Source: Pelagibacterales bacterium SAG-MED37 (lineage in GTDB: Bacteria > Pseudomonadota > Alphaproteobacteria > Pelagibacterales > Pelagibacteraceae). From it: a stretch of DNA of 64,000 nt. Positions 47,389-63,089 of this stretch are shown piece after piece. How positions within the stretch are numbered: the stretch's first letter is position 1; the number at the start of each line of letters is the position of its first letter. The notes under the pieces were generated by a model. It did not search any database, was not told the DNA's origin, and saw nothing but the letters and a program-made list of their open reading frames with translations. Location: contig JACWEG010000001.1 of NCBI GenBank assembly GCA_014653605.1, positions 62,001-126,000 of the forward strand, read 5' to 3'. Both the position numbers and the translations under genes were made by a program.

Positions 47389-49050
47389 ATGAATGTAGAA
47401 CTAAGAGATCCCAATATCATTATGAAGCTATCAAGGCTGGGTTCATTTCACCAATCTAGATTATCTTTTTTAAGAAGTTTTTTAAATGAATTTAAAGATT
47501 GGGATTATAGAAGAGATTTATTTGATTTAGATAAAGATGGATTTGGTACAGCAGTATATTCTTTTAAAAAAAAAGACAGAATTTATTCTTTAATTTGTTA
47601 CGCAAATAAAATCAATGATGATGAAAGATCAGATAGAGTAATAGCAACCAAGTGGGACGCAGCTTTTACATTGCATGATGGCGTGCCTTTAAAAGAAGAT
47701 ATTGAAAGATTAAGAAATGAAGTTCCAAAACAAGAAGTTGGTAGGCTTTCTTATAAAGAATTAACATTATCTAGAGCTAATAAATCTGTAAGAGTATTTG
47801 ATCATGTTGTTGAAAGTTTAAGTAATGGATTGCAACCAAATTTAGACTTGCTTGAAAAAGTGGGATATTTGTACAGAACAACAGCAGTATATGGATCAGG
47901 TAAGTTTGGTTTAGCAGATCGATTTAGAATTAAAAATAGAGAAGAAATTAACGGACCATTTAGATTAGAGATGATGCTGGTTTATCTAGTTAGACAATTT
48001 ACATTTGATCAAGTTAATCACGTAGCAAAAAATAGAAATCCTAAATCAGCTGTTAAACTTGATCCAAAAATTTGTAGAAATTTGGGAATTGGAAATTCAA
48101 CTGGATTAGGGATGGCCCCGTTTATTGTTAATCATCCAACATTACTTAATAATTGGATTCTTAGTAGAGAAGTTGCGCTCAAAAAAATAAGAGAAATTAA
48201 AATTGCTGAAACTCAAGATATAAGTTTGTTTCAAGAATGTGTCAAAAATTCTCTTAAAAATATTACTAGTTGGAACACAGAGAATGAATATCAACTTAAA
48301 AAGATAAAGCTTTTACTTAAGGACGTAAGAAAATTTATTCATTTTCTAGAAAATGAGTTTGATTTTAAAAAAGATTATCCATTTAATGAAATCTACCTTT
48401 GGCTAGAGAAAGAAACTTGTGAGGAGTGCATTGAGTATATTGTTTCAATAATGATGGAACCATTTGGTGAAATAGTTCAGCCTTTAATTAGTCAAATGAG
48501 CTCAGAAGAAGAAAAATACTTTAATATTCCTACTGAGCGAAATGTAGAAGACTTGAAGAAAATTTTAGAAAATAAGTATTCAGATATTCTGAAAATTGAT
48601 TTTAATAAAAAAGATAGTAATCAAAAATTTTGGTTTATTTCAAAAAACAAAGAAGAACCAAGATTAGCCAATCGTTTTGAAGAGAGTGGTGCAGATTTAG
48701 AACAACCTCTAGCAATAGCGAGAGATATAAAAAAACTATATGAAAGACTATTGTCTTTGAAAAATAATTTGAAAATTAATCAGTTTTTAATAGATAATTC
48801 TGATTTAAGACATGTTGTGAGAAGGGCTTTTATTATTGAAAACTTTCCATATTCAGAAATACAGGACAATACTATAGGAGAAAATATAGTACCAATTGAT
48901 ATGCTGCGATTGAAATTGTCTTTTTTTGGAGCTCTAAAATTTGACCCAAGATCTGACAAATGGCTAAGAATATGTATGTTTCAAGGTGCACCACTTCCAA
49001 ATGAATTAAAAGATTATGATGAGCAATGGGTTTATAAAACCTTCTCTTAA
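47389..49050 (+). CDS. Uncharacterised 553-aa protein
   Basis: I do not recognise the family. The soluble-looking 553-aa chain has no signal or membrane segments. Distinct blocks that look conserved are ATKWDAAFTLHDGVP, YGSGKFGLADRFRI, RLEMMLVYLVRQFTFDQVNHVA, GNSTGLGMAPFIVNHP, IMMEPFGEIVQ and DLRHVVRRAFIIENFPYSE. The Asn/His/Arg-rich motifs suggest an enzyme. It lies 2 bases after the M19 gene and 3 bases before the DUF3726-like gene, so these three are likely to work in one pathway. Confidence 0.8.
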   Translation: MNVELRDPNIIMKLSRLGSFHQSRLSFLRSFLNEFKDWDYRRDLFDLDKDGFGTAVYSFKKKDRIYSLICYANKINDDERSDRVIATKWDAAFTLHDGVPLKEDIERLRNEVPKQEVGRLSYKELTLSRANKSVRVFDHVVESLSNGLQPNLDLLEKVGYLYRTTAVYGSGKFGLADRFRIKNREEINGPFRLEMMLVYLVRQFTFDQVNHVAKNRNPKSAVKLDPKICRNLGIGNSTGLGMAPFIVNHPTLLNNWILSREVALKKIREIKIAETQDISLFQECVKNSLKNITSWNTENEYQLKKIKLLLKDVRKFIHFLENEFDFKKDYPFNEIYLWLEKETCEECIEYIVSIMMEPFGEIVQPLISQMSSEEEKYFNIPTERNVEDLKKILENKYSDILKIDFNKKDSNQKFWFISKNKEEPRLANRFEESGADLEQPLAIARDIKKLYERLLSLKNNLKINQFLIDNSDLRHVVRRAFIIENFPYSEIQDNTIGENIVPIDMLRLKLSFFGALKFDPRSDKWLRICMFQGAPLPNELKDYDEQWVYKTFS

Positions 49051-49053
49051 ATT

Positions 49054-49665
49054 ATGAAATCTTTAAGTGAAATTGAGACAACAGTAAAAAGAGCAAGTAG
49101 AGCTGCTGGTTATTCGTGGGGCATAGCAGAAGAGGTTGGAAAATCTATAAGGTTATCTGAATTATTTGGTTTTCCAGGAATTAAACATCTTAATCAATAT
49201 TATCAAAATAAAAAAAAAAAAAATTTTGATGATATAAAATTAATTGATAAGATTAACAAATCAAAAGGGTTATCTTTTTGTCCAATCACTTTAGGTGTAA
49301 ATTTTATTGATCAAGTTAAGAACATAGAAACTTTAACAAAATTTTCAGTTGAAAAATTAGCTTATCCATTGTTGCTTTTGCCTTTTTTAAGTAGAGGTTC
49401 AGAAATTATTGGAAAAAAACTATTATTCTCATTTGATGATAGTAAATTTTTGTTAAATTTTAATGTGAGTATTTCCTCAAATTTTTGGAACAAAGAGATT
49501 CCAGTTTTAGCAAATCAAGTAGAAATAAGTTTCTTAAATAATGAAGATAATTTTTCTAATCAAGATTGGAAAAATCTTTACAAACTAGCTGAGGATACTT
49601 TTGTAGAGGAAACAGATAGTTTAAAGGAGGGTGCTGCAGGTGCTGGTTTGACTGATAATGATTGA
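49054..49665 (+). CDS. DUF3726-like protein
   Basis: The 203-aa protein begins with LSEIETTVKRASRAAGYSWGIAEEVGKSIRLSELFG and ends in a Gly-rich DSLKEGAAGAGLTDND, which I associate with DUF3726 proteins of alphaproteobacteria. Function is unknown. It overlaps the next microprotein by 8 bases and follows the 553-aa gene after 3 bases. The Gly-rich C-terminus resembles an active-site or nucleotide loop but this is not established. Confidence 0.75.
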   Translation: MKSLSEIETTVKRASRAAGYSWGIAEEVGKSIRLSELFGFPGIKHLNQYYQNKKKKNFDDIKLIDKINKSKGLSFCPITLGVNFIDQVKNIETLTKFSVEKLAYPLLLLPFLSRGSEIIGKKLLFSFDDSKFLLNFNVSISSNFWNKEIPVLANQVEISFLNNEDNFSNQDWKNLYKLAEDTFVEETDSLKEGAAGAGLTDND

Positions 49666-50470: not shown

Positions 50471-50495
50471 AAAAAGGGGAGTTTTACTCCCCTTT
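50471..50495 (-). terminator. Intrinsic terminator of the metF-like/DmdA-like operon
   Basis: A 9-bp stem (AAAGGGGAG/CTCCCCTTT) with a 5-base loop lies just after the stop of the DmdA-like gene; on the minus strand it continues into T-rich sequence. The A-run on the other side could make it work in both directions. Confidence 0.9.
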
Positions 50496-50501
50496 ATTAA
50501 A

Positions 50502-51860
50502 TTAGCCTTTAACTACTTCTCTTGTATTAGCATTGAATGATTCCTTAAATGGAATATCAACTATTACTGCATCTACTGGTGCCCCCGCTTTGTCAGAATA
50601 TTTTTCAGGTAGATGAATTTTATACTTAGTACCAACTTTACCCTTAGGAAATCCATTTGGATTTAATGTTCCATCAAAAGGGACATATCCCATTGCAATA
50701 TTAGTTTTTTTCTCTGGATGATACCAAGGAGAAGTTAGAAATCCTACAGGATCTCCTCCATCTTCATTTGAAATTAACCAAAAATCTGGTGCATAATCTT
50801 CAATTGGTTTTCCTCCCAATTCAAGACCTACCAATTGTAGTTTATAGGGTTTTTTTCCAGCTTTAAGTTCACCTTTCATTTTTTCTAGAGCAGCTTTACC
50901 AACATAATCAGCTTTCTTATTCCACTCTCCTTTACCAGATAGTGAAACTTGGTAACCTAAATTACATTGGAAAGGATTATGTTGTTGATCCATATCTTGT
51001 CCCCAAGAAAGAATTCCTGCTTGAATTCTTCTATGATGAGCTGGCGCTATAACCATTAGATTATGTTTTTTTCCTGCATCTAAAACTGCATTCCACATAT
51101 CTTCAGCGTACAAAGTTGCATCTCTTAAATATATTTCATATCCCGCTTCACCTGAGAAACCTGATTGCGAAATAACACAACTTCTACCGCCAACCTTAAC
51201 TTCAGCTAGTCCATAAAATGGCATATTGTCAAAATCGACTTGATCTCCACAAAGATCTTTCATCAAAGCTTTAGACTTTGGACCTTGAATTTGAACAGGA
51301 CAAGCATCTATTTCTTCAACTGTACAATTAAATCTTTGATCAGCATTTACTCCTTGTAAATACATACCAATATCTGAGTCAGATAAAGAAAACCAAAATT
51401 CATCTTTAGAAATTCTTAATAGAATTGGATCATTTAAAACTCCACCGTATGCATTACATAAAATTACGTATCTTGCTCTCATAGGAGAGATCTTAGTTGC
51501 ATCTCTTGTTATTACATAGTCTGTAAACTTTTCTGCATCTGGACCTTTAACTCTAATTTGTCTTTCAACAGCAACATTCCACATGGTTACATGATTTACA
51601 ATTGCATCATATTCTACCATTGCTCCACCATCTTCTGGTTTTACATATCCTCTTGGGTGATAAATACGATTATATACAGTTGCTCTCCAACAACCTGCTT
51701 GCATTGATAAATGCCAATAAGGTGATTTCCTTACTCTTGTTGAAATTAACATTTCAACTTTTGTTGGCCCACTTTGTCTTAGATTATATGGTACTTCTCG
51801 ATCAGATTGATCAACAGAGGTAACATGTTTTAATTTAGTATAGTCAAACTCTTTAGACAT
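50502..51860 (-). CDS. DmdA-like GcvT-fold THF-dependent demethylase, substrate unknown
   Basis: The 452-aa protein belongs to the GcvT/DmdA aminomethyltransferase superfamily. WNVAVERQIRVKGPDAEKFTDYV, NDPILLRISKDEFWFSLSDSD, IQGPKSKALM and SGFSGEAGYEIYL align by eye with DMSP demethylase, but it is about 80 residues longer, with an N-terminal extension, and it is not the classic SAR11 DmdA. The family moves a methyl or methylene group from substrate to THF. It is translationally coupled (8-base overlap) to a MetF-like gene, which could process methyl-THF. DMSP, another sulfonium, or an N/O-methyl compound are candidate substrates. Confidence 0.75.
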   Translation of the reverse strand: MSKEFDYTKLKHVTSVDQSDREVPYNLRQSGPTKVEMLISTRVRKSPYWHLSMQAGCWRATVYNRIYHPRGYVKPEDGGAMVEYDAIVNHVTMWNVAVERQIRVKGPDAEKFTDYVITRDATKISPMRARYVILCNAYGGVLNDPILLRISKDEFWFSLSDSDIGMYLQGVNADQRFNCTVEEIDACPVQIQGPKSKALMKDLCGDQVDFDNMPFYGLAEVKVGGRSCVISQSGFSGEAGYEIYLRDATLYAEDMWNAVLDAGKKHNLMVIAPAHHRRIQAGILSWGQDMDQQHNPFQCNLGYQVSLSGKGEWNKKADYVGKAALEKMKGELKAGKKPYKLQLVGLELGGKPIEDYAPDFWLISNEDGGDPVGFLTSPWYHPEKKTNIAMGYVPFDGTLNPNGFPKGKVGTKYKIHLPEKYSDKAGAPVDAVIVDIPFKESFNANTREVVKG

Positions 51861-52581
51861 AACTATTCTCCTTCAACCACTTGTTAGTTTCCTTCAAGCC
51901 GCCGAATGTATAAATGTGGAAAAAATCAGTATGCGATTTAACTTTCCCAATTAAATCATTAGGGTCTTTAGGTTTTAATAAATCTAACGCCTTACTAAAA
52001 TTAGATTTAAGAAAATTTAAGGAATTTTTTGCTCCAACAATATTAGCAAATTTTATTAAGCTAGATATTTTAAGAGGGCCAGTAATTCCCACATGCACTG
52101 GTACGCTTTGTTTAGAAATAAAATCTATAATAGGCTGAGGATCTAATAACCATTGGGTTACAATATAATCAGCATAAGGCTTCTTATCTATCATAGCTTT
52201 TTCTAAATCTGAGTCGGATATATCAGGACTCCCCTCGGGGTGTCCAGCAATTCCTATCTTCATTTTTTCAAAATAACCTGTTTCTAAAAGTTGAAATGAG
52301 CTATCAAATTTTCCCATTGGCTCTCTACCACCACCAATAATCAAAGCTTGTTTTACTCCTCCATCTTTACATCTTAAAACATAGTCTTTTAACTCTTTTT
52401 CATTTTGCATAGATCTAGCTGGAAAGTGAGGTACAGGATTAAATCCCTTTTTAACAAGTTCAATAGCTTTTTGAGCAGTCTCTTTATAATCTCCTCCTGG
52501 CAACATAGTAATATAAACATCACTTACTAGAGGGATAGTTTCTATTTCGGTGTTAGGACCAATTTCTAAAGAAAAGTTCAT
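51853..52581 (-). CDS. Short MetF-like methylenetetrahydrofolate reductase family protein
   Basis: The 242-aa protein has the MetF barrel pattern: VSDVYITMLPGG, KKGFNPVPHFPARSM, ALIIGGGREPMG, IGIAGHPEGSPDI and YIVTQWLLDPQPI. Typical MetF is about 280-300 aa, so this is a shortened paralogue, and the classical GD-rich loop is replaced by GGGRE. It could oxidise methyl-THF made by the following DmdA-like enzyme to methylene-THF, using FAD. It is the first gene of the pair and is divergent from the Rieske oxygenase gene. Role in catabolism rather than methionine synthesis is inferred. Confidence 0.75.
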   Translation of the reverse strand: MNFSLEIGPNTEIETIPLVSDVYITMLPGGDYKETAQKAIELVKKGFNPVPHFPARSMQNEKELKDYVLRCKDGGVKQALIIGGGREPMGKFDSSFQLLETGYFEKMKIGIAGHPEGSPDISDSDLEKAMIDKKPYADYIVTQWLLDPQPIIDFISKQSVPVHVGITGPLKISSLIKFANIVGAKNSLNFLKSNFSKALDLLKPKDPNDLIGKVKSHTDFFHIYTFGGLKETNKWLKENSYV

Positions 52582-52658
52582 TTTTTCAGATCATTATCTT
52601 TTTTGTAAAAGCTGTCAAAGAAATTCAACAATATCCAAATCGAAATTTGTTGCCAAAA

Positions 52659-53876
52659 ATGATGCTCATGATAATTTTTTTTGTGGCTCAAAATTACAAA
52701 AATAAAATTTTATCTGAAATCTTAGATCTGAAAAAATTACATGCAGTGAATAAGCCTATTGAGACTGCTAACGGTCTTCCAAATGAATGCTACACAGATA
52801 AAGACTATTTTAACTATGAAAAGGACAAGGTTTTTTGTGATAAGTGGACAGTGATCGGGGTTGGAAGTTCAATTCCAAATCCAGGAGATGTCAAACCATA
52901 CAATCTACTCGGGATTCCTTTAATTATGATTAGAGATAAAGATATGAAGATTCGAGTTTTTCATAATGTGTGTAGTCACAGAGGTTTTAAACTTTTAGAC
53001 AAAACGTGTTCTCTAAAAAATGTTATCAGATGTCCATATCACTCTTGGGCCTATGACTTTAAAGGAAATCTAGTTGCAACACCTCACATTGGTGGTCTTA
53101 ACAATCATCAGTCAGAAAGATTCGATAAAACAAAAAGTAATTTAAAAGAAGTTAAAAATAAAGTTTGGATGGATATTATTTTTATTAACTTAAACTCTAA
53201 TGAAATTGATTTTGATGAATATATTAAGCCTCTTGACAATAGATGGTCTAAATTTATCAATAAAGAAGATCATAGATTAATAGTTCATTCAAATGATTAT
53301 GGTTACTTTAATTTAGATGTAAAATGTAATTGGAAATTTGCTATAGAAAATTATTGTGAAAGTTATCATCTACCAACTATTCATCCAGAACTAAACAAAG
53401 TCTCTAATATTAATGATCATTATCATATACAAGGTTTACCAAATAGATTTGCAGGGCAAGGAAGTAATAAGTATGAACAACTGATCAAGGGAAATAAAAA
53501 ATTTAACACTTTTTCAAATTGGGATAAGAATAATTTAAAAAAATCTGAATATGTAGCTTTATTTCCAAATGTTATGATTGGTTTACATATAGACCATTTT
53601 TATGTTTTTTGGTTAGAACCTTTGGCAATCAATAAAACTAGAGAACATATGCAGATGTATTATGTGGGTAATGCAAGTGCTAATGGGAAAGAATTGAAAG
53701 AGATGAGAAAAGAAAATTTAAAATTTTGGAAAAATGTAATGTTAGAGGATGTAGTTGCAATTGAAGGAATGCAAAGTGGAAGAAATTCACCTTCATATAA
53801 TGGAGGAAATTTTTCTCCAACAATGGATCAACCAACTCATCAATTTCATAAATGGGTAGCAGGAAATTTAATCTAA
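52659..53876 (+). CDS. Rieske oxygenase, glycine betaine/carnitine/choline monooxygenase type
   Basis: The protein of about 405 aa has a Rieske 2Fe-2S centre (CSHRG and CPYHSW, 17 residues apart) and a mononuclear iron site in ENYCESYHLPTIHPEL. That ENYxExYH...HPEL form is characteristic of enzymes that hydroxylate quaternary amines, such as GbcA, CntA and plant choline monooxygenase. Glycine betaine demethylation would feed the dimethylglycine dehydrogenase-like enzyme downstream. No reductase gene follows directly, but a plant-type ferredoxin lies 3 kb on. The track start is TTG at 52647; I use the first ATG, and ATG 52668 or GTG 52683 are also possible. Confidence 0.8.
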   Translation: MMLMIIFFVAQNYKNKILSEILDLKKLHAVNKPIETANGLPNECYTDKDYFNYEKDKVFCDKWTVIGVGSSIPNPGDVKPYNLLGIPLIMIRDKDMKIRVFHNVCSHRGFKLLDKTCSLKNVIRCPYHSWAYDFKGNLVATPHIGGLNNHQSERFDKTKSNLKEVKNKVWMDIIFINLNSNEIDFDEYIKPLDNRWSKFINKEDHRLIVHSNDYGYFNLDVKCNWKFAIENYCESYHLPTIHPELNKVSNINDHYHIQGLPNRFAGQGSNKYEQLIKGNKKFNTFSNWDKNNLKKSEYVALFPNVMIGLHIDHFYVFWLEPLAINKTREHMQMYYVGNASANGKELKEMRKENLKFWKNVMLEDVVAIEGMQSGRNSPSYNGGNFSPTMDQPTHQFHKWVAGNLI

Positions 53877-55436: not shown

Positions 55437-55621
55437 CGATTAAAAATATTTTAATCGTTATATTTATATTTGTAGGTTTATATGTAGTTTTAGATTTTAG
55501 AGACCATAATTTTAAAAGAGCTATAGACGCTTGTATTGCTGGAAGTAAAAAGTTGGATAAACCAATGACTACTCAGCAAGCAAAAGAGTTTTGTGAAGAT
55601 CAGATTAATAAAGATAAGTGA
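55433..55621 (+). CDS. 62-aa membrane-anchored hypothetical protein
   Basis: The protein has one N-terminal membrane helix (IKNILIVIFIFVGLYVVLDF) and a soluble tail with two cysteines (AIDACIAGSKK, AKEFCEDQINK) that could form a disulfide in the periplasm. It overlaps the crotonase gene by 4 bases and the SBP56 gene by 4 bases, so it is embedded in the operon. No family is recognised. Confidence 0.7.
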   Translation: MTIKNILIVIFIFVGLYVVLDFRDHNFKRAIDACIAGSKKLDKPMTTQQAKEFCEDQINKDK

Positions 55622-56994
55622 TGAATGATTTAGAAAAAACAAATAATACTTGTTGTGGTCCTGGTTATGCTAGTCCGTCTGAAGCAATTAAAGCACCTAA
55701 TGAAAAACTTTTATATACAATAGCTATTTACACTGGAACAGGAATTCAAAAACCTGATTATCTTGCAACTGTAGATGTTGATCCAGATAGTCCAACTTAT
55801 TCAAAGGTTATTCACCGTTTAGAAATGCCAGGGATTGGAGATGAATTACATCATATGGGATGGAATGCATGCTCTTCATGTCACGGTGATGCAGGAATGA
55901 GCAGAAAATATCTTTTAGTACCAGGTGTTAGATCAAATAATATTCATATAATAGATACAGCAACAGATCCATTTGCTCCAAAAATTCACAAAGTAATTAA
56001 AGGCTCAGAAATAAAATCTAAAACTAATTTGTCAGGACCACATACGGTTCATTGTCTAGGATCTGAAATTATTATTTCTTTTCTTGGTAATGCCAAGGGT
56101 GAAGCTCCTGGTGGATACTTGCATCTTAACAAAGATTTCGAAATTGTTGGAAGATGGGAAAACTCAATGGGAGATATCCCTTTTAGCTATGATTTTTGGT
56201 ATCAGCCACGTCACAACGTGATGGTAAGTTCAGAATGGGCTGCACCTAATACTTTTATGCCAGGCTTTGATTTGGAAGAAGTAGGACACTTAAAATATGG
56301 ACGAAGGCTTCATATCTGGGATTTTAAAAAAAAAGAACCAATTGAATCAATGTATCTTGGTGAGGATGGTCTAATACCATTGGAAGTAAAATTTAAGCAT
56401 GATCCTGATAGCACTCATGGATTTTGTGGGGCAGCACTCAGTTCTAACGTTATTCATTTTTGGAAATCCAAAGAGGGAAAGTGGGAGTGGGAAAAAGTTA
56501 TAGATGTCAATAATGAACCTCACCCAGATTGGCCTATACCTATTCCTGGTGTAATGTCTGCAATTCTAGTTTCAATGGATGATAAATATCTTTATTTAAA
56601 TAACTGGCTTCATGGAGACATGAGGCAATACGATATAACAGACCCACACAAACCAAAATTAACTGGACAAGTATGGATTGGTGGACTTTTAGGCAAAGCA
56701 CCAATTATTAATGGAGTAAAAATTGCAGGCGGTCCCCAAATGTACCAATTATCTTTAGATGGTAAACGAATGTACGTAACAACTTCTCTATTTTCAACTT
56801 GGGATAATCAATTTTATCCTAACATAAGAACACAAGGCGGCGCTATGGTTATGATTGACTGCGATGTTGAAAATGGTGGTATGAAAATTAATAAAGATTT
56901 TATAGTTGATTTTGGTAAAGAACCTAATGGCCCAAGTAGATGTCATGAAAGTAGATATCCGGGTGGAGATTGTACAAGTGATATATGGCTGTAA
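55618..56994 (+). CDS. mtoX: Selenium-binding protein 56 family, putative methanethiol oxidase
   Basis: The 458-aa protein shows the SBP56 pattern: CCGPGYASPSEA at the N-terminus, HHMGWNACSSCHGD, SGPHTVHCLG, DSTHGFCGAAL and the C-terminal RYPGGDCTSDIWL. Bacterial MtoX, which is a copper enzyme, oxidises methanethiol to formaldehyde, hydrogen peroxide and sulfide; human SELENBP1 does the same. In MtoX-type enzymes a signal peptide directs export, but none is obvious here, so a cytoplasmic location is likely. Methanethiol comes from DMSP demethylation, which suits a marine SAR11 cell. Its ending overlaps the ferredoxin gene by 10 bases. Confidence 0.85.
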   Translation: MMNDLEKTNNTCCGPGYASPSEAIKAPNEKLLYTIAIYTGTGIQKPDYLATVDVDPDSPTYSKVIHRLEMPGIGDELHHMGWNACSSCHGDAGMSRKYLLVPGVRSNNIHIIDTATDPFAPKIHKVIKGSEIKSKTNLSGPHTVHCLGSEIIISFLGNAKGEAPGGYLHLNKDFEIVGRWENSMGDIPFSYDFWYQPRHNVMVSSEWAAPNTFMPGFDLEEVGHLKYGRRLHIWDFKKKEPIESMYLGEDGLIPLEVKFKHDPDSTHGFCGAALSSNVIHFWKSKEGKWEWEKVIDVNNEPHPDWPIPIPGVMSAILVSMDDKYLYLNNWLHGDMRQYDITDPHKPKLTGQVWIGGLLGKAPIINGVKIAGGPQMYQLSLDGKRMYVTTSLFSTWDNQFYPNIRTQGGAMVMIDCDVENGGMKINKDFIVDFGKEPNGPSRCHESRYPGGDCTSDIWL

Positions 56995-57362
56995 AGAAAA
57001 TTACTATTATCAATCGTAAAAATAAAACTTTTGAGGTCTCAGACCGAAAACCCTTGCTACAAGAATTACGTGCTCAAGGAGTTGATCTTCCCTATGGATG
57101 TGAATATGGAGGCTGTATAACTTGTGCAGCAAAACTTATTAATGGTGAAGTAGATCAACGTTCTCAAGTAGCTTTAAACAATAGACAAATTAACAATGGT
57201 TATGTTGTTTTATGTGTTGCTCGACCAAAAACTGATTGTGAAATTGAAATTGGAGTTGAAAGTCACGATAAACTCTACCGCAATCCTTTTCTTGACCCAC
57301 TTGCACCACATGAGTTAAAAGCTGATATTGCAACTCAAAAAAATATTAAAAAGAATAAGTAA
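56985..57362 (+). CDS. Plant-type 2Fe-2S ferredoxin
   Basis: The 125-aa protein has the plant-ferredoxin pattern Cys-x4-Cys-x2-Cys in GCEYGGCITCAAKL, with the fourth cysteine in VVLCVARP. It is an electron carrier with one 2Fe-2S cluster and has a C-terminal tail beyond the domain. It overlaps the SBP56 gene and touches the CoA-binding gene. It might supply electrons to the Rieske oxygenase at the head of this cluster; there is no reductase gene nearby. Confidence 0.9.
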   Translation: MAVKKITIINRKNKTFEVSDRKPLLQELRAQGVDLPYGCEYGGCITCAAKLINGEVDQRSQVALNNRQINNGYVVLCVARPKTDCEIEIGVESHDKLYRNPFLDPLAPHELKADIATQKNIKKNK

Positions 57363-58953: not shown

Positions 58954-61386
58954 ATGAAATCTAAAACAAAAGTAGTAGTTGTTGGTGGTGGAGTAGTAGG
59001 AGTCAGCGCACTTTATCATTTAGCTAAAAAAGGCTGGTCTGATGTAGTTCTTGTAGAGAGAAAAGAATTAACTTCTGGATCTACTTGGCATGCTGCAGGA
59101 TTATTACCACTTTTCAATATGAGCTACTCTGTAGGTCAATTACATAAATATGCAGTCGATCTATATAAAAAATTAGAAGATGAAACAGGAAAGAATGTTG
59201 GATTTAGTGTTGTATCGAATATTCGTTTAGCAAGTACAAAAGATAGAATGGATGAATACCATCAATATGCTGGAGTAGCTAAAACTATTGGTGTTGATGT
59301 AAAATTTTTAACGCCTCAACAAGTAAAAGAAATTTGGCCTTTATGTCATACTGATGATTTAGTAGGTGCTATTCAACATCCTGAAGATGGTTATATTCAG
59401 CCTGCAGATTTAACTCAAGCACTTGCTACAGGTGCAAGAAATATGGGAGCCGAGATTTACAGGAACACAACAGTGATTGCAATGAAGCAAAATAAAGAAG
59501 GATGGATTGTTGAAACAGACAAAGGTTCGATTGAATGTGAACATATAATTTCTTGTTCTGGAAACTTTGCAAGACAAACTGGGGAAATGGTTGGATTAGA
59601 TATTCCAGTAATTCCTGTTGAACATCAATATATTGTTACTGAGCCTCACCCAGAAATTCAAAAAAGAAAAAAAGAAGGTCTTCCTGAAATGGGAGTGCTA
59701 AGAGATAGTGATAGTAGATGGTATATGAGAGAAGAGGCTGGTGGATTAATATTAGGTCCTTATGAAGATGGTGCTCCTGCTTGTTATGTAGAAGGTCCAT
59801 CTAAGAGTTCAGAATATGAATTATTTCAAGAAGATTTAGATAGACTTGCCCCACACATAGAAGGAGCAATACATAGAGTTCCTGCTTTTGGTGAGGTAGG
59901 AGTTAAAAAAGTTTATAATGGTGCAATTTGTTACACACCAGATGGAAATCCTATAGTTGGACCAGCTTGGGGTCTAAAAAATTTTTGGATTAATGAAGGT
60001 CATAGTTTTGGAATTACTGCTGCTGGTGGAGCTGGTTGGCAATTAGCAGAATGGATAGTAGATGGAGAACCAACCATTGATATGCTAGGCGTTGAACCAA
60101 GACGTTATGGAAACTATGCAACTAAATCTTATTTAAAAGCTAAAAATGAGGAAGCTTACAGTCATGTTTTTATTACTCACTATCCAGATGAAGAAAGACC
60201 AGCTGCAAGACCTTTAAGAACATCACCATGTTATGAAAGAATGAAAAATTTAGGTGCAGTATTTGGACAAAAATTTGGTTGGGAAAGACCAAATTTTTTT
60301 GCAACTGATGGCATGGAACAAAAAGATGATTGGTCTTTTAGAAGATCTAAATGGTTTGATGCTATAAAAAAAGAATGTCAAAACGTAAAAAAAAATGTTG
60401 GCCTTTTAGATATGACAGCTTTTGCCAAATGTAGAATAAGAGGACCAAAAGCAGAGGAATTTTTAGATTATTTAGTGGCTAACAAGCTTCCAAAAAAAAT
60501 TGGAAGAATAAATTTATGTCATGCTCTTAATACTAAGGGTGGTGTTCATTCAGAATTTACAATTATGAAAGAAGCTGAAAATAAATATTATCTTGTTTCA
60601 GCAGGCGCAAATTTAAGATTAGACCATGACTGGATCCAAAAGTGGATGCCCACAGATGGATCAGTTATATTTGAAGACTTAACAAATAGTACTGGAGTAC
60701 TTGTTGTGGCAGGGCCAAAAGCAAGAGAATTAATGCAAAAAGTTTCTGTAGATGATTTTTCAAGCGAAAATTTTAAATGGTTAACAGCTAAAAATGTTAA
60801 CGTTGGATATGCTCCAGTCAATGCTATGAGAGTAAACTTCGTTGGTGAATTAGGCTGGGAGCTACACCATCCGATTGAATATCAAAACCATATATTTGAT
60901 AAGTTAATGGAAGCAGGAAAAGATTTGGGAATTAAACCTTTTGGAATAAGAGCAATGAATAGCTTGAGACTTGAAAAATCTTATAAATTAGTTGGTACAG
61001 AATTATCTATTGAGTATTCACCTTACGAGTCTGGTTTAGATAGATTTATTCATCCTAACAAAGGTAATTTCATTGGGCTTGAGGCTTTAAACAAATGGAG
61101 AGAAAAAGGTTTTGATAATAAATTAGTTACACTAGAAGTTCACAACACAACAGACTCAGATGTTTTAGGAAACAATCCCATTTATAAAGATGATAAAGTA
61201 GTAGGAAGAGCTACAGGTGGAGAATATGGATTTAGACTGGATAAATCTATAGCTTTAGCAATGGTGAAACCTGATCTTGCTAATGTTGGTGAAAAACTTA
61301 AAGTTGATATATTAGGAAAAATGTACGAGGCTACAATTTTAGAAGAAAGTCCATACGATGTTGAAAATAAATTGTTGAGAGCCTAA
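58954..61386 (+). CDS. Dimethylglycine dehydrogenase-like FAD/GcvT enzyme
   Basis: The 810-aa enzyme has an N-terminal FAD domain ([17 protein letters not shown]) with [10 protein letters not shown], where His46 matches the histidine that holds FAD covalently in DMGDH, then a linker and a C-terminal GcvT/folate domain ([36 protein letters not shown]). DMGDH oxidises dimethylglycine to sarcosine, with THF taking the C1 unit and electrons passing to ETF. The next genes are etfB, sharing one base, and etfA, which supports this strongly. Sarcosine dehydrogenase is the close alternative. Confidence 0.87.
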
Positions 61387-62135
61387 TGAAAATTTTAGTC
61401 GCAGTAAAAAGAGTTATTGATTACAACGTTCAAATAAGAGTTAAAGAAGATAATACAGGTGTAGTTACTGATAATGTTAAGATGTCTACTAATCCACCAG
61501 ATGATAATGCTATAGAAGAGGCGGTAAAAATTAAAGAGGCTGGAAAAGCTACTGAAGTTATAGCTGTTAGCATTGGAGAAGAGAAAGCTCAAGAGACGGT
61601 ACGTAAAGCTTTAGCAGTAGGTGCAGACAGAGGTATACTTGTTAAGACTGAGGGGATTTTAGAACCATTAGCAGTTTCTAAACTTTTACAAAAAATAGTT
61701 GAAAAAGAAAAACCAGATTTAGTTTTTATGGGCAAACAAGCAATTGATGATGATTGTAATCAAACTGGTCAAATGCTAAGTGCATTACTTAATTGGCCTC
61801 AAGCGACTTTCGCATCTAAAATTGAGATTAAAGATAAATCCTTGGAAGTTACAAGAGAAATCGATGAGGGGTTAGAAACAATAGAAATAAATGTTCCAGC
61901 AATCGTTACATGTGATCTAAGATTAAATGAACCTAGATATGCGTCATTACCAAATATAATGAAAGCCAAGAAAAAGCCAATTGAACAAATAAATGCGTCA
62001 GATTTAGGAGTAGATACAACTCCAAGAATCGAGCAAACTAGGGTTGAAGAACCACCTAAAAGAAAAGCAGGTATAAAAGTTTCTAGTGTGGCAGAATTAG
62101 TTCAGAAATTAAAAAATGAAGCAAAGGTAATATAA
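61386..62135 (+). CDS. etfB: Electron transfer flavoprotein beta subunit
   Basis: The 249-aa length and the start [25 protein letters not shown] are typical, with the AMP-site-region segment [21 protein letters not shown] and the recognition loop [21 protein letters not shown] that docks to dehydrogenases. EtfAB carries electrons from DMGDH-type and acyl-CoA dehydrogenases to ETF:quinone oxidoreductase. It is transcribed between the DMGDH-like gene and etfA with no gap. Confidence 0.97.
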
Positions 62136-63089
62136 ATGTCAGTTTTATTAATAGCAGAACATAATAATAAAGAACTTAGACCTTTTACTCTTAATGCTGC
62201 AACTGCAGCTTCTCAAATAGATACAGATGTTCATGCGGTTATTATAGGTCATGAATGTGGAGAAGCAGCTAAAGCACTTTCAGAATTAGAATTGATAAAA
62301 AAAGTTATTCAAGTTGAAGCTCCTCACTATGAAAATTTTGTTGCTGAAAATTTTGCCCCAGTAATTGTTAAATTATCAGAAAATTATTCACACATTATTT
62401 CTTCCGCAAATACTTTTGGTAAAAATTTAATGCCAAGAATTGCTGCAGCTTTAGATACTTCTCAAATTAGTGATATTACAAAAGTTGTGTCTAATGATAC
62501 TTTTTTAAGACCAATTTATGCTGGGAATGCTTTTGCTACTGTAAAAAGTAAAGACAACAAAAAATGTGTAACAATAAGACCTACCTCATTTGATCCTTGT
62601 GAAAGTTCTGGGGGATCTGCACCTATTGAAAAAGCAGAAGCAGGTGAAGAATTTGTACAAACAAAATTTATAAAAAGAGAAGAAATTAAATCTGATAGAC
62701 CTGAACTTGGAACGGCTAGAGTAGTTGTTTCTGGTGGTAGAGGAATGCAAAGTGGTGATAATTTTAAATTAATTACTTCACTAGCTGACAAATTAAATGC
62801 AGCAATTGGTGCATCTAGAGCAGCTGTTGATGCAGGTTATATAAGTAATGATCATCAAGTTGGGCAAACAGGTAAAGTTGTAGTGCCAGATTTATATATT
62901 GCAGTAGGTATATCTGGAGCTATTCAACATTTAGCTGGAATGAAAGAAAGTAAAGTAATAGTTGCAATTAACAAAGATGGTGAAGCACCAATATTTAGTG
63001 TTGCTGATTATGGTCTTGAAGCTGATCTTTTTGAAGCACTTCCTCAATTCTTAGAGGAATTGAACAAATTAAACACTATACAAAAATAA
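62136..63089 (+). CDS. etfA: Electron transfer flavoprotein alpha subunit
   Basis: The 317-aa subunit has the FAD-binding C-terminal domain: VSGGRGMQSGDNFKLI, AIGASRAAVDAGYISND, QVGQTGKVVVPDLYIAVGISGAIQHLAGM and INKDGEAPIFSVADYG. It binds FAD and forms the heterodimer with EtfB. It follows etfB immediately and is followed after 23 bases by the ETF:quinone oxidoreductase. Confidence 0.97.
   Translation: MSVLLIAEHNNKELRPFTLNAATAASQIDTDVHAVIIGHECGEAAKALSELELIKKVIQVEAPHYENFVAENFAPVIVKLSENYSHIISSANTFGKNLMPRIAAALDTSQISDITKVVSNDTFLRPIYAGNAFATVKSKDNKKCVTIRPTSFDPCESSGGSAPIEKAEAGEEFVQTKFIKREEIKSDRPELGTARVVVSGGRGMQSGDNFKLITSLADKLNAAIGASRAAVDAGYISNDHQVGQTGKVVVPDLYIAVGISGAIQHLAGMKESKVIVAINKDGEAPIFSVADYGLEADLFEALPQFLEELNKLNTIQK

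What the first reader, a model, noticed from the sequence alone, without database searches (positions are those of the whole stretch)
50502..52581. DmdA-like demethylase coupled to a shortened MetF-like protein: uncharacterised methyl-to-THF module
The two minus-strand genes overlap by 8 bases and end at a strong terminator. The 452-aa enzyme resembles DMSP demethylase by motif but is about 80 residues longer, and the 242-aa partner is MetF-like but short and lacks some usual MetF features. DmdA makes methyl-THF, and a dedicated MetF could oxidise it to methylene-THF. The methyl donor is unknown and could be a sulfonium, betaine or other marine osmolyte.
Basis: partly seen in the sequence, partly recalled or inferred. 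Interest (0 to 1): 0.65.

Follow-up and report, generated by a model that had tools for sequence, protein, structure and literature searches.

The report
Betaine demethylase paired with folate-oxidising MetF
Two overlapping genes, near-universal in one branch of the ocean's commonest bacteria (SAR11), look like a two-enzyme unit that moves a methyl group from a salt-protecting betaine (most likely glycine betaine) onto the vitamin folate and then oxidises it for energy, a B12-free route not reported for this step in the papers I could read.

Summary
In this SAR11 genome a 452-aa GcvT-fold protein (50502-51860, -) and a 242-aa MTHFR-like protein (51853-52581, -) overlap by 8 bases and end at a strong hairpin. 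The pair is not new as a sighting: Sun et al. 2011 describe what must be its HTCC1062 counterpart, SAR11_1264/1265, as metF plus an aminomethyltransferase of unknown substrate. The MetF-like protein belongs with the SYK-6 type MTHFR, shown to oxidise methyl-THF and to pair with THF-dependent demethylases. The 452-aa protein is neither DmdA, GcvT nor LigM; it forms its own strongly supported clade, spanning SAR11, other alpha- and gammaproteobacteria and haloarchaea. New here is a substrate case. Orthologs recur in glycine-betaine degradation clusters (dimethylglycine dehydrogenase, sarcosine oxidase, GbdR, serine ammonia-lyase, formate-THF ligase). Two gammaproteobacteria with the full GbdR cluster lack every known first-step glycine-betaine demethylase tested (GbcA, BHMT, MttB/MtgB). 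In 25 of 44 SAR11 relatives a betaine-type ABC transporter sits directly upstream in the same direction. Best reading: a B12-independent glycine betaine:THF methyltransferase feeding an oxidative MTHFR. DMSP or another betaine remains possible in SAR11, because the linked binding protein is DmpX-like. No activity was measured.

The parts
50502..51860 (-). 452-aa GcvT/DmdA-superfamily THF methyltransferase; predicted glycine betaine (betaine-type onium):THF methyltransferase
   Evidence: PF01571 134.7 bits; DmdA model 228.9 vs cut-off 410; own clade, 100/100 support; 158 columns at least 97% conserved over 36 core orthologs
51853..52581 (-). 242-aa MTHFR-like protein of the SYK-6 (S6MTHFR) type; predicted methyl-THF oxidase
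   Evidence: Best PDB match 7xg9 E 4.8e-31 vs 5.5e-3 for the next; 7xg9/7xlf are SYK-6 MTHFR; the only PF02219 hit in this 79%-complete genome
51853..51860 (-). 8-base overlap of the two genes (translational coupling inferred)
   Evidence: Conserved in 57 of 58 SAR11 loci checked
50473..50495 (-). Terminator-like hairpin AAAGGGGAGT-AAA-ACTCCCCTTT followed by T, just after the 452-aa stop codon
   Evidence: -14.6 kcal/mol, z -3.2; sequence
52647..53876 (+). Divergent neighbour: Rieske oxygenase alpha subunit, nearest solved relative carnitine monooxygenase CntA; below the GbcA cut-off; start codon uncertain. Context, not part of the module
   Evidence: GbcA model 128 vs 670 bits
58954..61386 (+). 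FAD + GcvT-domain oxidoreductase (dimethylglycine/sarcosine dehydrogenase-like), 7.1 kb from the module; probable next step(s)
61386..63089 (+). ETF beta and alpha subunits, probable electron acceptor of the 810-aa dehydrogenase
   Evidence: PF01012, PF00766

Best explanation
The 452-aa protein binds THF in a GcvT/DmdA-type fold and takes one methyl group from a betaine, most likely glycine betaine, in a redox-neutral transfer (glycine betaine + THF -> dimethylglycine + 5-methyl-THF), without cobalamin, oxygen or homocysteine. The co-translated 242-aa S6MTHFR-type protein then oxidises 5-methyl-THF to 5,10-methylene-THF. FolD and formate-THF ligase (and formate dehydrogenase) carry it on to formate and CO2 with energy gain, while dimethylglycine goes on to sarcosine and glycine through the FAD/GcvT dehydrogenases. 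SHOWN here: gene pair, fold families, clade, conservation, gene neighbourhoods, absence of other known first-step enzymes in two genomes. INFERRED: substrate, reaction direction, co-translation, physical coupling.
For: (a) Gammaproteobacteria L151, L152, L191, L192 carry AMT-MetF-FTHFS-GbdR-SdaA-DMGDH; the regulator passes NCBIfam's GbdR cut-off (500.8 vs 480). (b) Alphaproteobacteria carry AMT with SoxB/D/A(/G) and DMGDH, e.g. L136, L144, L145, L146; also gamma L189. (c) Haloarchaeal plasmids carry AMT + MTHFR with FolD, FTHFS, BCCT, ilvA/glyA and FAD-dependent oxidoreductases. (d) A DMGDH-type gene lies within about 10 kb of the AMT in 16 of 32 genomes against 0.55 expected, and in 9 of 18 families against 0.38. 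(e) G644 and G677 (estimated 100% complete) have the GbdR cluster but no Rieske alpha subunit, no GbcA, no MttB/MtgB, and only MetH plus non-BHMT homocysteine methyltransferases. (f) In 25 of 44 SAR11 relatives an OpuAC-type binding protein and a ProW-like permease lie directly upstream of MetF-AMT on the same strand, gap 61-78 bases. (g) The MetF-like protein matches the SYK-6 MTHFR, which oxidises methyl-THF beside THF-dependent demethylases (PMC12585457, PMC13001107). (h) Ca. P. ubique lacks metH and metE (PMC5069961), so methyl-THF has no methionine-synthase outlet there and would have to be oxidised. (i) The need for a MetF implies methyl-THF as product, which fits an onium donor and not dimethylglycine or sarcosine (established chemistry).
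Against: The SAR11 binding protein next to the pair is nearest to DmpX, a DMSP binder (PMC10030565), with the tryptophan cage kept, so in SAR11 the donor may be DMSP. SAR11 has a BHMT for glycine betaine (PMC3160333). G872 and G1123 also carry true GbcA, and the G949 cluster contains an MttB-family gene. About half of the orthologs show no informative neighbours. No binding-pocket model was obtained: AlphaFold mean pLDDT 41. No assay.
Confidence: 0.55

Rival explanations
1. The same type of enzyme, but the main donor is another carboxylated or quaternary onium compound (proline betaine, carnitine or choline-type, beta-alanine betaine, homarine), with glycine betaine minor.
For: Divergent CntA/GbcA-like Rieske oxygenase beside it in SAR11; creatinase/ectoine-hydrolase-like M24 gene beside it in L149; MttB-family gene in the G949 cluster.
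Against: GbdR + SdaA + DMGDH + sarcosine oxidase clusters fit glycine betaine -> glycine -> serine -> pyruvate. No other substrate-specific gene set recurred among the neighbourhoods I could read.
Confidence: 0.18
2. In SAR11 the enzyme demethylates DMSP or another sulfonium (a second, DmdA-like DMSP demethylase), with MetF oxidising the methyl-THF.
For: Sister clade to DmdA; the linked binding protein in 25 of 44 relatives is closest to DmpX, with Trp35, Thr64, Trp84, Glu113, Trp152, Tyr200 and Trp202 kept (PMC10030565); SAR11 uses DMSP heavily.
Against: Related SAR11 genomes also carry true DmdA (L165, 521 bits vs cut-off 410). The DmdA tryptophan tied to DMSP specificity (W197 of 3tfh; PMC7487153 numbers it W171) is Phe in all 36 core orthologs, and Arg194 is Gln. 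Orthologs lie in glycine-betaine clusters.
Confidence: 0.13
3. It removes the second methyl of DMSP breakdown (methylmercaptopropionate), as Sun et al. 2011 speculated.
For: Relatedness to DmdA and adjacency to metF (PMC3160333).
Against: Methylmercaptopropionate is now known to go through DmdB and DmdC in Ca. P. ubique (PMC5069961). A thioether is a poor methyl donor for THF (established chemistry). Orthologs occur in glycine-betaine clusters and haloarchaea.
Confidence: 0.03
4. The protein is a GcvT-like aminomethyltransferase or a non-catalytic folate-binding protein, and MetF is an ordinary biosynthetic reductase.
For: Belongs to the GcvT superfamily.
Against: Far below GcvT models (146 vs cut-off 300 bits); Arg of the GcvT SRTGY motif is Gln; the MetF-like protein is not canonical and groups with the oxidative SYK-6 type; Ca. 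P. ubique has no MetH/MetE (PMC5069961).
Confidence: 0.06

Closest known systems
LigM + S6MTHFR module of Sphingobium lignivorans SYK-6 (with LigH, formate-THF ligase)
   Same: THF-dependent demethylase of GcvT descent plus a reverse-running MTHFR, neighbouring genes, with formate-THF ligase nearby in gamma, alpha and haloarchaeal versions; the MetF-like protein is 29% identical to S6MTHFR.
   Different: Demethylase is far from LigM/DesA (33.7 and 40.8 bits vs cut-offs 580 and 800); substrate is probably a betaine, not an aryl methyl ether; the MetF-like protein is about 45 residues shorter with Gly in place of the Asp120 position.
DmdA, DMSP demethylase (Pelagibacter 3tfh)
   Same: Nearest solved relative; GcvT fold; shared motifs; redox-neutral methyl transfer to THF expected.
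   Different: Separate clade, 83 residues longer, W197 -> F and R194 -> Q, conserved N-terminal extension VPxNLRQSG, coupled to its own MTHFR.
SAR11_1265/SAR11_1264 of HTCC1062 (Sun et al. 2011)
   Same: Same gene pair by description: aminomethyltransferase of unknown substrate adjacent to metF, close to DmdA, some ten genes from dmgdh. Identity inferred from the description, not from the HTCC1062 sequence.
   Different: That paper suggested the second DMSP methyl group; the evidence here points to betaines.
GbcAB, BHMT and MtgB, the known glycine-betaine demethylases
   Same: Would do the same first step, glycine betaine to dimethylglycine.
   Different: Those use O2 + Rieske iron-sulfur, homocysteine, or cobalamin; this would use THF directly and belongs to another protein family.

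Membership tests
DmdA (NCBIfam NF009133 equivalog) | Model score at or above 410 bits | tested here: not met
   228.9 bits; true SAR11 DmdA L165 scores 521
DmdA (NCBIfam NF009133 equivalog) | Tryptophan of the DMSP pocket (W197 of 3tfh; W171 in PMC7487153 numbering, matched here by alignment) | tested here: not met
   Phe in all 36 core orthologs
DmdA (NCBIfam NF009133 equivalog) | Falls inside the DmdA clade | tested here: not met
   Sister to DmdA + DmdA-like (that group 100/97); AMT core 100/100
GcvT | Model score (NF001567 cut-off 300; TIGR00528 235.85) | tested here: not met
   146.1 and 125.7 bits
LigM / DesA | Model score (cut-offs 580 / 800) | tested here: not met
   33.7 / 40.8 bits
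GCV_T superfamily (PF01571) | Pfam gathering score 25.6 | tested here: met
   134.7 bits
S6MTHFR-type (oxidative) MTHFR | Closest to SYK-6 MTHFR rather than canonical MTHFR | tested here: met
   7xg9 E 4.8e-31 vs 0.0055 for T. thermophilus; fold search top three all SYK-6, low-confidence model
S6MTHFR-type (oxidative) MTHFR | Gene paired with a THF-dependent demethylase | tested here: met
   Paired with a demethylase-family gene: 8-base overlap, 57 of 58 loci; AMT and MetF neighbours in haloarchaea, alpha and gamma. That the partner is a demethylase is itself inferred
S6MTHFR-type (oxidative) MTHFR | Oxidises 5-methyl-THF to methylene-THF | not testable with these tools
   needs enzyme assay
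Canonical MetF (PF02219, TIGR00676/00677) | Curated cut-offs | tested here: not met
   21.5 vs 24; 21.7 vs 293.7; 26.7 vs 310 bits
Glycine betaine catabolic cluster (GbdR regulon type) | GbdR, DMGDH/sarcosine oxidase and serine deaminase beside the first-step enzyme | tested here: inconclusive
   Met for orthologs L150-L152, L191, L192; the window itself has only the DMGDH-like gene 7 kb away
Glycine betaine:THF methyltransferase (proposed) | Makes dimethylglycine and 5-methyl-THF | not testable with these tools
   needs enzyme assay

The most novel reading that the evidence does not exclude
A fourth, B12- and O2-independent class of glycine betaine demethylase: a direct glycine betaine:THF methyltransferase, spread across SAR11, other proteobacteria and haloarchaea, that with its oxidative MTHFR turns a major nitrogenous osmolyte of the ocean into folate-bound C1 for energy, solving the SAR11 'unknown aminomethyltransferase' open since 2011.
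Probability: 0.5. Interest if true: 0.78.

Novelty: new variant of a known kind. Interest (0 to 1): 0.6.

Why it matters
[quoted passage not shown] Models route its first methyl through BHMT to methionine, which cannot carry a large catabolic flux unless methionine is spent as fast. A THF-dependent route would let the first methyl be burned for energy like the other two. It would also give a function to a gene near-universal in one Pelagibacter genus, and explain how gammaproteobacteria with a GbdR regulator but no GbcAB degrade glycine betaine. It is directly testable with two purified proteins.

Tried and rejected
AlphaFold of the 452-aa protein with the SAR11-only alignment allowed by the tool gave pLDDT 41, useless for the pocket. 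The MetF-like model is weak (57) but its best matches are SYK-6 MTHFR. Rfam on the window: no riboswitch or other RNA. Promoter scan: no excess over shuffles. The Rieske neighbour as part of the module: rejected as a fixed part because it is missing in 6 of 44 SAR11 relatives and absent from the gamma clusters. Loci where the AMT stands without betaine genes (L138, L139, L141, L147, L193-L202) were inspected for another recurring partner; none was found beyond closely related genomes. A phage-record hit at 39% (MT835505, human faeces) was not pursued.

Full report
WHAT IS THERE. The window is from a Pelagibacteraceae (SAR11) genome of 0.98 Mb, 79% complete. On the minus strand a 242-aa gene (51853-52581) is followed by a 452-aa gene (50502-51860) with an 8-base overlap. 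A GC-rich hairpin just past the second stop folds at -14.6 kcal/mol, z -3.2. The arrangement is conserved: 80 near relatives carry the 452-aa gene at 93-99% identity, and the MetF-like gene with the same 8-base overlap was found in 57 of 58 loci. Twenty-four of 27 genomes of the same genus and many, not all, of the other genera of the family have it.

THE 452-AA PROTEIN. Pfam places it in GCV_T (134.7 bits). It falls short of every curated equivalog: DmdA 228.9 of 410, GcvT 146 of 300, LigM 34 of 580, DesA 41 of 800. Its nearest solved relative is SAR11 DmdA 3tfh (E 6e-42). In a maximum-likelihood tree of 58 sequences the orthologs form a clade (core 36 rows, 100/100) that is sister to DmdA plus DmdA-like proteins; the join of the two groups is 100/100 (outgroup branches are long, so the root is uncertain). 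The core clade includes haloarchaeal plasmid copies, about 50-57% identical to the SAR11 protein. Across the 36 core members 158 columns are at least 97% identical, including an N-terminal extension (VPxNLRQSG) that DmdA lacks. The DmdA residues W197 and R194 are F235 and Q232 here, without exception in the core clade. PMC7487153 names the tryptophan as the DMSP-specific residue, under the number 171; I matched the two by alignment.

THE 242-AA PROTEIN. It scores under the curated cut-offs for MTHFR. Against solved structures it matches 7xg9 at E 5e-31, while the best canonical MTHFR is at 0.0055. The fold search names 7xg9 and 7xlf as the MTHFR of Sphingobium sp. SYK-6, free and with methyl-THF (weak model, pLDDT 57). 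That enzyme oxidises methyl-THF to methylene-THF beside the THF-dependent demethylase LigM (PMC12585457; Yu et al. 2025 as cited in PMC13001107). The alignment with orthologs and 7xg9 keeps the Glu of the SxE motif (7xg9's own N-terminus was not in the aligned piece), the PH, the TQ and a C-terminal HxxxFGG...W pattern (haloarchaeal copies vary the FGG); the E. coli Asp120 position is Gly in SAR11 and in L136. Sphingobium and rhizobial plasmids also carry this type, the rhizobial one next to another aminomethyltransferase gene. It is the only PF02219 gene found in this incomplete genome. Because Ca. P. ubique lacks metH and metE (PMC5069961), methyl-THF there has no methionine-synthase outlet, so an oxidative role is the natural one (inference).

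PRIOR KNOWLEDGE. Sun et al. 2011 (PMC3160333) describe SAR11_1265, an aminomethyltransferase of unknown substrate close to DmdA, next to metF SAR11_1264, and suggested it removes the second methyl in DMSP breakdown. SAR11_1253 is their dimethylglycine dehydrogenase; here a DMGDH-like gene lies 7.1 kb away. I take these to be the same genes from gene order and description; the HTCC1062 sequence itself was not compared. Smith et al. 2016 (PMC5069961) list both transcripts at 0.1-0.2 of the exponential-phase level under some of the conditions tested. No paper among those searched assigns a substrate.

SUBSTRATE EVIDENCE FROM NEIGHBOURS. In gammaproteobacteria L151, L152, L191 and L192 the order is AMT-MetF-formate-THF ligase, then GbdR, serine ammonia-lyase and a FAD/GcvT dehydrogenase. 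L150 has the same cluster with only a MetF remnant. The regulator passes the GbdR equivalog cut-off. In alphaproteobacteria the gene sits with SoxBDA(G) and DMGDH (L136, L142, L144, L145, L146; also gamma L189). In haloarchaea it sits with MTHFR, FolD, formate-THF ligase, BCCT, IlvA or GlyA, and FAD-dependent oxidoreductases. Counting one protein type only, DMGDH-like genes are within about 10 kb in 16 of 32 genomes where 0.55 are expected from their genome-wide density, and in 9 of 18 families where 0.38 are expected (the count treats families as independent). On the tree the DMGDH linkage needs at least 6 changes of state and the MetF linkage at least 5, so the linkage was made or lost several times rather than inherited as one block.

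THE MISSING ENZYME. G644 and G677 (estimated 100% complete) have the full GbdR cluster yet no Rieske alpha subunit at all, no GbcA-like protein and no MttB/MtgB. Their homocysteine-methyltransferase-family proteins are MetH plus proteins that score with homocysteine S-methyltransferase or with nothing, not BHMT. The AMT is the obvious candidate for glycine betaine to dimethylglycine there. Redox-neutral transfer to THF would yield methyl-THF, which explains why a MetF is needed; dimethylglycine and sarcosine are demethylated oxidatively to methylene-THF and need none (established chemistry).

IN SAR11 ITSELF. In 25 of 44 relatives with full flanks an OpuAC-family binding protein and a ProW-like permease lie directly upstream of MetF, same strand, 61-78 bases away. 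In the L040 example the divergent genes are a Rieske oxygenase, a homocysteine-methyltransferase-family gene and a DMGDH-like gene. The binding protein is closest to 7yle, DmpX, a DMSP binder; seven of its eight named pocket residues are kept (PMC10030565, read off the alignment). So in SAR11 a betaine-type substrate is well supported, but DMSP is not excluded. The window's own genome lacks this transporter next to the pair.

VERDICT. A real, conserved, previously sighted pair. The general mechanism (THF demethylase + oxidative MTHFR) is a known kind; the demethylase clade and its likely betaine substrate are new. I put 0.55 on glycine betaine as the main donor. Steps shown: sequence families, clade, conservation, neighbourhoods, missing alternatives in two genomes. 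Steps inferred: substrate, direction, coupling.

Noticed in passing
window 55618-57362: SBP56-family protein (distant match to methanethiol oxidase MtoX) with a 2Fe-2S ferredoxin, found in only 5 of 44 near relatives at this place: a variable insertion between otherwise conserved genes.
   Followed up: partly
window 58954-61386 vs L040:351-2756: At or near the same place SAR11 relatives carry a different DMGDH-like paralog (about 37% identical to the window's 810-aa one), as if the two types had been exchanged.
   Followed up: partly
L127 1-16916, L129 11231-14564: Haloarchaeal plasmids carry an apparent folate/C1 gene island around the AMT: formate-THF ligase, two FolD-like genes, pabA/pabB-like genes, MTHFR; DHFR and MTHFR in Haloarcula.
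   Followed up: no
L164:619-1752 (G000:C54): A second SAR11 paralog (378 aa) scores 391.8 bits on the DmdA model, just under the 410 cut-off, and branches outside true DmdA: another aminomethyltransferase of unknown donor.
   Followed up: partly
window 47389-49665: Two adjacent conserved genes (553 and 203 aa), present in 39 of 44 relatives; the 553-aa protein has no Pfam match.
   Followed up: no
L005 upstream of 8001; L150 upstream of 11026: Rare loci where the MetF-like frame is broken or reduced to a remnant while the AMT stays intact.
   Followed up: no
L188 (G949:C29): Cluster of MttB-family gene, DMGDH, formate-THF ligase, MetF, AMT and a GbdR-like regulator together: possible two-route betaine locus.
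   Followed up: no
MT835505.1 32890-34032: A 'Bacteriophage sp.' record from human faeces encodes a GcvT/DmdA-family protein 39% identical to the query; could be host DNA in the record.
   Followed up: no
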